A stretch of DNA of 64,000 nucleotides from assembly GCF_018734325.1 (NCBI RefSeq), contig NZ_CP073754.1:620001-684000 (forward strand), given 5' to 3'. The position numbers were made by a program, and so were the translations under genes. The DNA is from Methylomonas paludis (GTDB lineage Bacteria > Pseudomonadota > Gammaproteobacteria > Methylococcales > Methylomonadaceae). The notes beneath the pieces were generated by a model. That model did not search any database, was not told the origin of the DNA, and saw only the letters and a list, made by a program, of their open reading frames with translations. Below, in pieces: positions 1 through 42,480 of this stretch. The stretch's first letter is position 1. The number at the start of each line of letters is the position of its first letter.

Positions 1-117
1 TTGGTGACCATAGCGAGCGTGAACCACCCGATCCCATCCCGAACTCGGAAGTGAAACCGCTTAGCGCCGATGATAGTGTGGCAGTTTGCCATGTGAAAGT
101 AGGACATTGCCAAGCTT
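1..117 (+). rRNA. rrf: 5S ribosomal RNA (5' end at or just beyond the window edge)
   Basis: The sequence matches the bacterial 5S rRNA pattern throughout: the CCGATCCCATCCCGAACTCG segment, then GAAGTGAAACCGC, TTAGCGCCGATGATAGTGTGG and a 3' strand ending in GCCAAGC. The 5' TTGGTGACC pairs with the 3' GCCAAG as helix I. One or two 5' bases probably lie outside the window. It is the last gene of an rRNA operon to the left and is followed by a strong terminator. Confidence 0.95.
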
Positions 118-40224: not shown

Positions 40225-41001
40225 ATGTTTATTGACTCTCATTGCCATCTCGACCGCATCGACCTAAGCCGCTATCAGAATGATTTCGATTTATTTGTCC
40301 AGGATGCCGGCCATCAGCAAATTGAGCACATGCTCTGCATCAGTATTGACCTGGAACGCTATCCGGCTATGCACGAACTGGTGGCGGCTTATCCGCAGAT
40401 TTCCCTGTCGGTGGGTGTGCATCCTACTGTTACTGATGGTCAGGAGCCCAGTCAGGCCGATTTACTGGCGCTGGCCGCTGATTCTAAAGTGATTGCCATC
40501 GGTGAAACCGGATTGGATTATTTTCATAATCAAGGGGATTTGGCTTGGCAACATCAGCGTTTTATCAATCATATAGAAGTTGCCAAAACGTTACGCAAGC
40601 CGCTGATTATTCATACCCGTGATGCCGGTCAGGATTCATTGCAAGTGCTGGCAGCCCACGGGGCTGATCGGGTTGGTGGTATTATTCACTGTTTTACCGA
40701 AGACTGGGCCTATGCCGAAAAAGCGTTGGAGTTGAATTTTTATATCTCGTTTTCCGGCATAGTGACATTTAAAAATGCCCATGCCATCAAGGAAGTTGCC
40801 CAAAAAGTCCCGGCTGACCGGTTTTTGATAGAAACCGATTCCCCGTATCTGGCTCCCACGCCATTTCGTGGCAAACCCAATTATCCGGTATATGTGCGTT
40901 ATGTAGCGGAAGCCATTGCCGAGTTGCGGGGTATTAGCGTGGCCGAAGTAGCGGCATTAAGCACTGCCAATTTCCGCCGTTTGTTTGCAGAGCATTTGTA
41001 A
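40225..41001 (+). CDS. TatD-family metal-dependent hydrolase (YcfH type)
   Basis: 258 residues. Metal ligands are seen in FIDSHCHLDRID, IGETGLDYFHNQ, IIHTRDAGQD, GIIHCFTED and ETDSPYLAPTPFRGKPN. TatD-family enzymes are metal-dependent DNases/hydrolases; the position after holB is that of ycfH. The stop lies a few bases before the terminator of the minus-strand candidate RNA at 41004. Confidence 0.94.
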   Translation: MFIDSHCHLDRIDLSRYQNDFDLFVQDAGHQQIEHMLCISIDLERYPAMHELVAAYPQISLSVGVHPTVTDGQEPSQADLLALAADSKVIAIGETGLDYFHNQGDLAWQHQRFINHIEVAKTLRKPLIIHTRDAGQDSLQVLAAHGADRVGGIIHCFTEDWAYAEKALELNFYISFSGIVTFKNAHAIKEVAQKVPADRFLIETDSPYLAPTPFRGKPNYPVYVRYVAEAIAELRGISVAEVAALSTANFRRLFAEHL

Positions 41002-41003
41002 AA

Positions 41004-41099
41004 CGCAAAAAAAATGCGGTCACCGAGGGGAGGAGACCGCATTTAACGAGGAAGGAAATAACTCGCTTACCTGGAGGTGTGGTTCAGGTACTTGAGTCG
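41004..41099 (-). ncRNA. Candidate small RNA with three hairpins and C/U-rich anti-Shine-Dalgarno loops
   Basis: On the minus strand a perfect -10 box (41106-41111) is followed by about 95 non-coding bases ending in an intrinsic terminator. The RNA would fold into three hairpins in series: TACCTG / CAGGTA with loop AACCACACCTC (41068-41090); CGAG / CTCG with loop TTATTTCCTTC (41047-41065); and the terminator stem AAATGCGGTC / GACCGCATTT with loop TCCTCCCCTCGGT (41012-41044). Each loop is C/U-rich and the last can pair with AGGGGAGGA-like ribosome binding sites. Trans-acting small RNAs of the CcsR/cuckoo type use such loops. Read on the plus strand the same DNA shows GGA in every loop, as in CsrA/RsmA sponge RNAs, but no plus-strand terminator is present. 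Size, promoter and terminator favour the minus strand. Confidence 0.6.
41007..41044 (-). terminator. Intrinsic terminator of the candidate small RNA (minus strand)
   Basis: A perfect 10-bp stem (41012-41021 with 41035-41044) is followed on the minus strand by T residues continuous with the stem (eight in a row, 41007-41014). On the plus strand only three T residues follow. The stem starts ten bases after the tatD stop, so it could also protect the tatD message. Confidence 0.85.
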
Positions 41100-41349
41100 G
41101 TACTGATTATAGAATAAGCCTGGGATCAGGAAAATGAGGCAAATTGCCGCGTGACAAATTGTCGCTGCCTGGCGCTTTGAAACGCTTAGCCTAGTGTGCT
41201 CTGGTGCAGTACTTGAACTTAACTCACAGCACATCGGTCAATCTGTGCTTAATTGATTTGAAAAACCATAAAGCCTAGCCAGGATGCTGCCACGCGGTGC
41301 CGAAAACCCGTGCTGCGATTTTCTTTATGGTGAATAGCGACGAGAAACC
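41100..41349. other. Promoter and leader region of rlmG, with inverted repeats
   Basis: No gene. It holds two small palindromes (GGCAAATTGCC 41138-41148, GACAAATTGTC 41153-41163) and a 9-bp inverted repeat (ACCATAAAG 41265-41273 / CTTTATGGT 41323-41331) whose right arm ends 18 bases before the rlmG start codon, so it could close a leader structure near the ribosome binding site. Confidence 0.5.
41106..41111 (-). promoter_or_regulatory. -10 box of the candidate small RNA
   Basis: Perfect TATAAT on the minus strand, placing a start near 41099. The -35 region at 17 bases reads TTTTCC, a weak match, so an activator may be needed. Confidence 0.45.
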
Positions 41350-42480
41350 ATGGAAACCTGTTTAGAAGTACCGCAAGGCAGTTATCAATTGCAGCGCTTG
41401 CCGTTGCGTAAACTCGAGTTGCTGCAAGCCTGGGATGCTGCCGACTGTTATTTGCTGGAGCATCTGGCTGGCGCAGCACCGCCGCTGAATACGTCCATCG
41501 TTATTTTAAACGATAGCTTTGGTGCATTAGGTGTGGCGCTGCATGATTATTCGCCGCTAGCCAGCTCAGACTCTTATCTTTCCCAACAATCCAGCCGCCA
41601 CAATCTGGTTTTAAATGGTCTGGCAGCAGAGCAATTGACTTTGTTAAGTAGTTTGGAAACACCAGCGGGCGAAATTGATTATCTTTTGATCAAAGTGCCG
41701 AAAACCCTGGCCTTGCTGGAATATCAATTGTTATGTCTGCGACCGCTGTTAAGACCAGATAGTAAAGTTATTGTCGCTGGTATGGTGAAAAACCTGCCGG
41801 CATCGGTCTGGAAACTGCTTGAGCGGCTGATCGGCCCCACCACCACTTCCTTGGCAGTAAAAAAAGCCCGTTTAATTTTTGCCCAGCTTGACCCGGCTAT
41901 CCCGCTGCCGGATAACCCCTATCCGTCCAGCTACATACTTGAAAACAGCGCTTACCGGATTTACAACCACGCCAACGTATTTTCGCGTGATAGCCTGGAT
42001 ATCGGCAGCCGCTTTTTACTTCAGCATTTGCCCAATAATCCTGATTACCATGATTTCATCGATCTGGGTTGCGGTAATGGCGTGATCGGCTTGATGCTGG
42101 CGGCAAAGCAGCCCCAGGCCAGGCTGACTTTTGTGGATGAGTCCTATATGGCGCTGGCCAGCGCCCGGCAAAATTTTACGGCAGCACTTGCGGAAAGAAC
42201 CGCCGATTTTGTGTTGGATGACTGCCTAAGCAGTTTTGCGCCGGCTGCCGCGGATTGTATTATTTGCAATCCGCCATTCCATCAGCAGCATACCATCGGT
42301 GATCACATCGCCTGGCAAATGTTCAAACAGGCCTATCGGGTGTTGCGTCCGGGGGGTGAGTTGCGCGTCATCGGTAACCGCCATCTCAATTATCCGGCCA
42401 GCCTGAAAAAATTGTACGGCAATTGTCAGGTGCTGGCCGGCAATGACAAGTTTGTAATTATGCGGGCATTAAAGCGTTAA
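41350..42480 (+). CDS. rlmG: 23S rRNA (guanine-N2) methyltransferase RlmG-type
   Basis: 376 residues with a degenerate N-terminal methyltransferase-like half and an active C-terminal Rossmann domain: HDFIDLGCGNGVIGLMLAAK (SAM site), TFVDESYMALASARQNF, and the catalytic CNPPFHQQHTIGDHIAWQMF. This NPPFH form with the N-terminal duplication is that of RlmG/RsmC; the HTIGDHIAWQMF stretch and overall order favour RlmG (G1835 in E. coli numbering). RsmC is the main alternative. The 3' end overlaps the convergent gene at 42458 by 23 bases. Confidence 0.85.
   Translation: METCLEVPQGSYQLQRLPLRKLELLQAWDAADCYLLEHLAGAAPPLNTSIVILNDSFGALGVALHDYSPLASSDSYLSQQSSRHNLVLNGLAAEQLTLLSSLETPAGEIDYLLIKVPKTLALLEYQLLCLRPLLRPDSKVIVAGMVKNLPASVWKLLERLIGPTTTSLAVKKARLIFAQLDPAIPLPDNPYPSSYILENSAYRIYNHANVFSRDSLDIGSRFLLQHLPNNPDYHDFIDLGCGNGVIGLMLAAKQPQARLTFVDESYMALASARQNFTAALAERTADFVLDDCLSSFAPAAADCIICNPPFHQQHTIGDHIAWQMFKQAYRVLRPGGELRVIGNRHLNYPASLKKLYGNCQVLAGNDKFVIMRALKR

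What the first reader, a model, noticed from the sequence alone, without database searches (positions are those of the whole stretch)
41004..41111. Candidate novel small RNA on the minus strand between tatD and rlmG with anti-Shine-Dalgarno loops
Seen in sequence: perfect TATAAT (41106-41111, minus), about 95 non-coding bases, three serial hairpins with unpaired C/U-rich loops, and a 10-bp terminator stem with T8. The terminator loop TCCTCCCCT is complementary to strong ribosome binding sites. Known: alphaproteobacterial CcsR/cuckoo RNAs expose CCUCCUCCC in loops. Inference: a gammaproteobacterial RNA that represses translation by masking Shine-Dalgarno sequences, or titrates such sites. On the plus strand the same loops would show GGA, so a CsrA-sponge is the alternative.
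Basis: partly seen in the sequence, partly recalled or inferred. Interest (0 to 1): 0.8.

Follow-up and report, generated by a model that had tools for sequence, protein, structure and literature searches.

The report
Candidate small-RNA family of methanotrophs
A short stretch between two genes of a methane-eating bacterium looks like a real gene for a small regulatory RNA, one of a family of sibling RNAs that probably block the start sites of other messages and that seem to be switched on together by one regulator.

Summary
The finding is real and larger than described. The minus-strand element (predicted RNA about 41099-41007) is one copy of a multi-copy small-RNA family that BLAST barely sees (2 of 61 genomes). 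Downstream of tatD it is present in 31 of 36 genus genomes. A model from 29 of these matches 185 of 301 genomes of the order, all in one family, with one to five copies each. Rfam has no match at threshold. Most copies share a 5' hairpin, a single-stranded C/U-rich anti-Shine-Dalgarno linker and an intrinsic terminator, behind a palindromic box, often doubled. The box is present in 37 of 37 genus genomes with zero control hits and resembles published RegA/PrrA/RegR sites. However, feo, the one ChIP-supported RegA target in Methylomonas, lacks such a site in 27 of 29 genomes examined, so the regulator is unproven. Best reading: a co-regulated set of trans-acting anti-SD RNAs. Transcription and targets are untested.

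The parts
41007..41099 (-). Predicted small RNA, about 93 nt (start inferred from the -10 position, end from the T-run)
   Evidence: Sequence; synteny and covariance model. The own copy is one of the 29 training rows, so its own match is by construction. No transcript data.
41151..41165 (-). Upstream palindrome 1, GCGACAATTTGTCAC
   Evidence: an abutting dyad in this register (<=2 mismatches) in 32 of 46 cluster representatives
41130..41150 (-). Palindrome 2 with tail (the box; here GCGGCAATTTGCCTCATTTTC, 1 mismatch)
   Evidence: 37 of 37 genus genomes with a box at <=2 mismatches, 0 control hits; order-wide
41106..41111 (-). -10 element TATAAT
   Evidence: relatives mostly have TAAACT/TAGACT-like hexamers at the same place
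41094..41098 (-). P1 5' strand (GACUC)
   Evidence: Pair probability 0.72-0.81; helix kept in 98.7% of cells over 25 distinct rows
41060..41064 (-). P1 3' strand (GAGUU)
41068..41090 (-). Apical hairpin UACCUG/CAGGUA with C-rich loop AACCACACCUC
   Evidence: the apical part varies in relatives (CCCC/GGGG, UCC/GGA, absent in L006); the second copy type has CUCCCUCUCC there
41048..41058 (-). C/U-rich single-stranded linker UUUCCUUCCUC: the conserved anti-Shine-Dalgarno-like segment
   Evidence: Mean unpaired probability 0.94; position kept in relatives
41012..41044 (-). Intrinsic terminator hairpin (10 bp)
   Evidence: six of nine aligned pairs show changes on both sides
41007..41014 (-). T-run of the terminator (T8)
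40225..41001 (+). tatD (convergent neighbour)
   Evidence: PF01026, TIGR00010 above cut-off
41350..42480 (+). rlmG-like methyltransferase (divergent neighbour)
   Evidence: Best NCBIfam match NF011577 RlmG, 353.4 of 468 bits, below its cut-off; PF05175

Best explanation
The element is a gene for a trans-acting small RNA, one of a family of sibling RNAs under a shared promoter box. Shown by comparison: the gene's conservation and strand, the 5' hairpin, the C/U-rich linker, the terminator, the shared palindromic box, and the absence of convincing matches outside one bacterial family in the genomes sampled. Inferred: a transcription factor binds the palindromes upstream of a promoter that lacks a -35 element and switches the siblings on together, most likely the redox response regulator RegA (about even odds). 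Hfq and the terminator stabilise the RNA. The linker pairs with purine-rich Shine-Dalgarno regions and lowers translation of a set of mRNAs, the sibling linkers (UUUCCUUCCUC, ACUUCCCUCUC, AUACCCCACCUC, ACCCUUCUUCUC) giving overlapping target sets.
For: Synteny: 31 of 36 genomes. Paired cells 95.3% against 85.5% shuffled and covariation score 0.383 against 0.193, 0 of 500 shuffles as high for either. Model R1: 185 of 301 genomes of the order, all in family f1, one to five matches each, some in tandem; the own genome has a second copy at C1:3420314-3420398. Box: 37 of 37 genus genomes, 0 hits of the reversed control; 228 of 301 in the order at <=1 mismatch. Of 50 box sites picked by me, mostly ones not already known as model copies, 28 lead into a hairpin / C/U linker / terminator RNA or its start (my reading). 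Linker 8-mer unpaired 0.92 against 0.56 for all 8-mers before the terminator, 47 clusters. The window copy's linker pairs better with -20..-1 of 49 window genes than with two control positions (p 0.003 each). RegB/RegA-type operon in the genome; palindromes close to published RegA-family motifs. Hfq present.
Against: No transcript evidence. Base order in the linker is not shown to matter: for the window copy, shuffled linkers pair with ribosome sites better than the real one (-4.59 against -3.82 kcal/mol), for copy 2 slightly worse (-3.31 against -3.84, p 0.04). Low pairing of a C/U-rich stretch is partly a composition effect; no composition-matched control was made. One measure is weaker: pairs with changes on both sides, 9 against 6.6, reached by 21 of 500 shuffles. 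The 5' hairpin beats shuffles at 5% in only 14 of 46 clusters (mean z -1.47, one cluster too short to test), and a few clusters show no clear 5' hairpin. The feo promoter, the one ChIP-supported RegA target in Methylomonas, has no dyad within 1 mismatch in 27 of 29 genomes. RegA sites of At. ferrooxidans do not fit the published motifs either. The kinase and regulator are below their curated family cut-offs.
Confidence: 0.66

Rival explanations
1. Same RNA family, but the shared box is read by a different, unidentified regulator (not RegA), so the signal is not redox.
For: 27 of 29 feo promoters examined have no such dyad within 1 mismatch, although RegA binds the feo promoter in Methylomonas sp. 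DH-1. Upstream dyads fit the PrrA and RegR motifs less well than the box dyads do (within 1 mismatch in 6 and 17 of 46).
Against: Box dyad within 1 mismatch of the PrrA motif in 33 of 46 and within 2 in 46 of 46 (shuffled 0.2% within 2); upstream dyad, not part of the search pattern, within 1 mismatch of the R. capsulatus motif in 31 of 46 (shuffled 0.4%). 34 of 37 genus genomes have one strong RegA-type match (E about 1e-54 or better), none over the curated cut-off; the 3 misses are 78-83% complete.
Confidence: 0.4
2. The RNA is a decoy: it does not silence mRNAs but soaks up something, e.g. a purine-rich RNA (such as the 190-nt RNA found behind the same box in some relatives) or Hfq.
For: Five of 50 inspected boxes lead into a longer RNA with a purine-rich stretch that by eye is complementary to the linkers (GAGGAGGGAGG, GGGGAGGAAGGAAAG).
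Against: In the window's own genome BLAST finds only a terminator-like piece of that RNA; its purine stretch is largely paired in the one fold made (L155). No duplex energy was computed.
Confidence: 0.12
3. CsrA/RsmA sponge read from the plus strand.
For: GGA motifs appear on the plus strand; it folds moderately well.
Against: The scan lists no plus-strand promoter or terminator at the element (it also misses the minus-strand ones); T-run, -10 and box are on the minus strand here and in the relatives read.
Confidence: 0.02
4. Only a terminator for a neighbouring gene with chance upstream motifs.
For: The hairpin lies just past the tatD stop.
Against: The T-run is on the minus strand, opposite to tatD; the whole box-to-terminator unit recurs at other places in the same genomes.
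Confidence: 0.03

Closest known systems
sX13 of Xanthomonas (PMC3771888; search listing and passages seen)
   Same: Small RNA of gammaproteobacteria (115 nt) whose C-rich motifs repress mRNAs with G-rich motifs; homologues reported in one bacterial family.
   Different: Beside polA, three stem-loops with C-rich loops, one gene described; here tatD-linked plus other sites, one 5' hairpin, C/U segment in a linker, several copies behind a palindromic box.
CcsR / cuckoo RNAs of alphaproteobacteria
   Same: Several sibling small RNAs, linked to C1 metabolism and stress.
   Different: Processed from one transcript with a DUF1127 small-protein gene behind an RpoH promoter; here the copies read have their own box and terminator.
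PcrZ of Rhodobacter (PMC8139620; passages seen)
   Same: Small RNA with a consensus site for a RegA-family regulator (PrrA) in its promoter.
   Different: Represses photosynthesis mRNAs; no sequence comparison was made here.
RegB/RegA of Methylomonas sp. DH-1 (PMC13274454; abstract and sections 12, 13, 16 read)
   Same: Same genus as named relatives of this family; the window genome encodes a kinase with the GGASNPI motif and a RegA-type regulator. The paper leaves the intermediaries of indirect RegA effects (tbdr, tonB) unidentified.
   Different: 'Small RNA' and 'sRNA' occur 0 times in its text; its direct target feo lacks the box in 27 of 29 genomes examined here.
Sibling anti-SD RNAs such as RcoF/NmsR of Neisseria, alpha-r7, RsaE (recalled; mentions alpha-r7 as having three stem-loops and C-rich apical motifs)
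   Same: Exposed C/U-rich segments, sometimes in sibling copies.
   Different: Different hosts, structures and promoters; not compared by sequence here.

Membership tests
sX13 family | Gene beside polA | tested here: not met
   Neighbours of the window copy are tatD and an rlmG-like gene
sX13 family | Three stem-loops with C-rich apical loops | tested here: not met
   Favoured fold: 5' hairpin with nested apical hairpin, free C/U linker, terminator; the serial fold has probability about 0.19
sX13 family | C-rich motifs required for repression of G-rich targets | not testable with these tools
   Needs reporter assays
CcsR/cuckoo | Co-transcribed with a DUF1127 small-protein gene | tested here: not met
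   At this locus the neighbours are tatD and rlmG-like on the other strand; other copies not checked for DUF1127
CcsR/cuckoo | Shared precursor behind an RpoH promoter | tested here: inconclusive
   Copies read show their own box and terminator; promoter type is inferred from sequence only
Any Rfam family | Score at or above a family's gathering threshold | tested here: not met
   Window: only 5S rRNA; four paralogue loci: none; permissive scans give only matches below gathering
RegA/PrrA/RegR binding site | Fit to published 15-17 bp motifs | tested here: met
   Box dyad: mean mismatches 1.0-1.5 against 5.1-7.0 shuffled; upstream dyad 2.2-3.7 against 5.4-7.2; 46 of 47 representatives, one with too little upstream sequence
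RegA/PrrA/RegR binding site | Same kind of site at a known RegA target of the genus (feo) | tested here: not met
   2 of 29 genomes have a dyad within 1 mismatch in 250 nt upstream of feoA
RegA/PrrA/RegR binding site | Protein binding | not testable with these tools
   Needs ChIP or EMSA
CsrA sponge (plus strand) | Plus-strand promoter and terminator | tested here: not met
   One search lists none at the element; T-run on the minus strand

The most novel reading that the evidence does not exclude
A family-wide RNA regulon: in methanotrophs of this family one redox-responsive regulator switches on a bank of anti-Shine-Dalgarno small RNAs (four candidates in the window genome), a small secreted-protein gene, and, in some relatives, a longer purine-rich RNA that could antagonise them. 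Together they would re-set translation when the quinone/NADH balance shifts, and would be the missing intermediaries of RegA's indirect effects in Methylomonas.
Probability: 0.3. Interest if true: 0.8.

Novelty: new member of a known kind. Interest (0 to 1): 0.63.

Why it matters
Among the listings of my searches (an open-licence library, only the top rows listed) I saw no paper on natural trans-acting small RNAs in gammaproteobacterial methanotrophs. One Methylomonas transcriptome paper names rnpB, 6S, SRP RNA and tmRNA as its non-coding RNAs (passages). If the reading holds, these bacteria, which consume methane and are used for methane bioconversion, have a multi-copy RNA layer of control behind one box. 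It would give a concrete candidate for the unidentified intermediaries of RegB/RegA control during methanol growth, testable with an existing deletion strain. For RNA biology it is a family in which helix and terminator sequences change while linker composition, linker position and promoter box stay.

Tried and rejected
BLAST-style conservation: 2 of 61 genomes and no plasmid match; misleading, because the RNA diverges fast. Rfam: nothing but 5S rRNA at threshold. Weak hits outside the family in the class search (9 genomes, E 0.0017-0.0092): the 8 fetched (L093-L100) all lack the box (best 6-7 mismatches), read as chance; the ninth (G639) was not fetched. A conserved short ORF starting at the AUG of UUGUAUGCG: read by eye in several copies, stop positions differ, not pursued. 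A first structure tally with the start placed too far downstream (C/U 8-mer in 101 of 102, unpaired 0.80 against 0.56) was replaced. Target prediction beyond 49 mechanically called window genes was not attempted: the whole genome was not available as a file. The feo promoter test of the RegA idea came out negative and is reported as such; it covers 30 of the 39 feoB matches, and feoA was found in 29 (one of these doubtful). A longer RNA behind the same box in another family of the order (L189, L190) was seen in the 2 genomes read of 18 non-family genomes with a box, and not followed.

Full report
What is there. On the minus strand between tatD and an rlmG-like gene lies TATAAT at 41111-41106, a predicted 93-nt RNA (41099-41007) and an intrinsic terminator with T8. 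The strand folds much better than chance (z -4.58, 0 of 200 shuffles). The promoter scan lists no sigma-70 promoter there; by eye no -35 hexamer fits. Immediately upstream lie two abutting 15-bp palindromes, GCGACAATTTGTCAC and GCGGCAATTTGCCTC (41165-41136), followed by ATTTTC.

Conservation. blastn found a match in 2 of 61 genomes, the own one and one weak hit. Synteny told a different story. tatD was found in 36 of 37 genus genomes, and the sequence downstream of it was read in all 36. A box, -10, 5' hairpin, C/U linker and minus-strand terminator are present in 31: 29 caught by a pattern plus L006 and L011 read by eye. They were not seen at that place in 5 (L009, L016, L018, L020, L037). 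The plain alignment A1 (29 rows, 25 distinct) keeps the stems: 95.3% of cells paired against 85.5% when shuffled and covariation score 0.383 against 0.193, 0 of 500 shuffles as high for either. Nine of 18 pairs have changes on both sides, against 6.6 shuffled, reached by 21 of 500. Slid controls give 30-50% paired. Most double changes are in the terminator; three of the six P1 pairs never vary within this set.

A family of siblings. A covariance model from A1 found matches in 185 of 301 genomes of the order, 28 of 50 genera, all in family f1, one to five per genome, some in tandem. Such E-values are rough and the own copy is a training row. The window genome has a second copy at C1:3420314-3420398. 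Twenty places with further copies were fetched. With five loci from earlier calls and the window, 26 sources gave 37 model matches, the window copy being counted twice. Where enough upstream sequence is in hand, a version of the same promoter element is visible. In the class-wide search with a second model 11 of 369 genomes rang, 2 of them in family f1. The other 9 are weak, and the 8 fetched have no box. Both wide searches used stricter filters that lose weak matches. An exact 27-base piece of the second copy type was found in 12 records, among them Methylomonas lenta, M. koyamae and two Methylobacter tundripaludum strains, others being further Methylomonas strains and MAGs. Rfam gives no match at threshold and only weak ones below it.

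The box. GCGNCAATNTGYCACATTTTC with up to 3 mismatches occurs 6 times in the own genome, the reversed control 0 times. Two of these are the model copies. Two more lead into RNAs of the same plan that the model misses (518880, 1634432; read by eye). One precedes a 79-residue protein (EexN family by NCBIfam, 34.9 bits against a cut-off of 33; no Pfam match). One shows none of these features. With up to 2 mismatches, 37 of 37 genus genomes have boxes and the control is 0 in all. With up to 1 mismatch, 228 of 301 genomes of the order have it (by my count of the table 210 of 227 in family f1 and 18 of 74 in other families). From the box lists I chose 40 stretches, mostly leaving out sites already known as model copies, and added 3 own loci; they hold 50 sites. 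By my reading 28 lead into a small RNA with terminator or its start, 11 into a small secreted-looking protein gene, 5 into a longer RNA with a purine-rich stretch, and 6 into nothing recognised. ORFs behind 9 of these sites were translated, and only the own small protein was family-searched. The 5 longer RNAs align well. A BLAST search with one of them rang in 28 of 121 family genomes, many of these by the terminator alone, and in the own genome only a terminator-like piece matched.

Anatomy across the family. All box sites in hand (145 distinct at up to 4 mismatches; not an independent sample, since many loci were fetched for their model match) gave 91 distinct transcripts with a terminator, 47 clusters at 85% identity. 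Most share a 5' hairpin whose sequence changes freely (27 different outer stems, some of only 2-3 pairs), a C/U-rich linker, and the terminator. A few clusters show no clear 5' hairpin. The linker 8-mer, chosen by composition, is unpaired with mean probability 0.92, against 0.56 for all 8-mers before the terminator. Part of that is a composition effect; no composition-matched control was made. The 5' parts fold moderately better than shuffles (mean z -1.47; 14 of 46 clusters at 5%; one too short). That terminator loop is not conserved in the relatives.

Does it fit ribosome sites? The linker of the window copy pairs better with the 20 bases before 49 window genes (mechanically called, ATG starts) than with two control positions (means -3.82, -2.25, -2.22 kcal/mol; p 0.003 each). 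Shuffled linkers do better still (-4.59), so base order is not supported for this copy; for the second copy the real linker is slightly better (-3.84 against -3.31, p 0.04). The claim is therefore limited to purine-rich sites, not to named targets. Hfq is present in the genome.

Which regulator? The genome has a RegB/RegA-type operon: a kinase with GGASNPI, best NCBIfam ActS/PrrB/RegB, and a 182-residue regulator, best NCBIfam ActR/PrrA/RegA. Both are below the curated cut-offs (207.6 of 350 and 184.5 of 250 bits). 34 of 37 genus genomes have one such strong match to the regulator family, none over the cut-off; the 3 misses are 78-83% complete. Against the three motifs quoted in PMC5506826, the box dyad has 1.0-1.5 mismatches on average (shuffled 5.1-7.0). 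The upstream dyad, which was not part of my search pattern, is within 1 mismatch of the R. capsulatus motif in 31 of 46, of RegR in 17, of PrrA in 6, and sits in exact register in 32 of 46. Against this, in Methylomonas sp. DH-1 RegA was shown by ChIP to bind the feo promoter. I scanned feo regions of 30 genomes; feoA was found in 29 (one doubtful, 8 residues), and 2 of 29 have a dyad within 1 mismatch in 250 nt upstream. The same paper finds no appreciable binding at tbdr and tonB and leaves the intermediaries open; box-driven RNAs are candidates. I give RegA about even odds.

Conclusion. It is a new member of a known kind, anti-SD small RNAs, in a multi-copy family that I did not find described. 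The added points are the shared promoter box and the distribution across the family. Everything about expression, targets and regulator is inference that standard experiments in a laboratory methanotroph can settle.

Noticed in passing
L155:386-610, L158, L159, L174, L176 (genus relatives): A conserved RNA of about 190 nt without clear ORF behind the same box, with a purine-rich stretch (GAGGAGGGAGG and variants), an ACAACAAUAAUAA-like stretch and a strong terminator; no Rfam match at threshold. Possible antagonist of the sibling RNAs.
   Followed up: partly
L105:1609-1845 (own genome, C1 near 2235040) and similar ORFs in L141, L146, L153, L154, L157, L160, L165, L169, L170, L175: A small secreted-looking protein (EexN family by NCBIfam in the own copy; the others likened by eye) repeatedly sits behind the same palindromes: a co-regulated protein of unknown role.
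   Followed up: partly
L083 (G280:C32), L084 (G238:C79), L085 (G132:C1): Tandem arrays of two to four sibling RNA genes, each with its own box and terminator.
   Followed up: partly
L189, L190 (another family of the same order): The same box precedes a longer RNA with an AACUCUUA.../...UAAGAGUU-like long-range helix and C/U-rich stretches, read by eye; may be a distant relative.
   Followed up: no
L038:367-461: One relative has three palindromes in tandem upstream of the RNA instead of two.
   Followed up: no
feoA upstream regions, L204, L212, L214, L217, L228: A Fur-box-like AATGAGAACMATTATT stretch upstream of feoA in all five regions printed; label recalled, not tested.
   Followed up: no
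window 1-115 (+): 5S rRNA gene at the very start of the window (Rfam RF00001).
   Followed up: no
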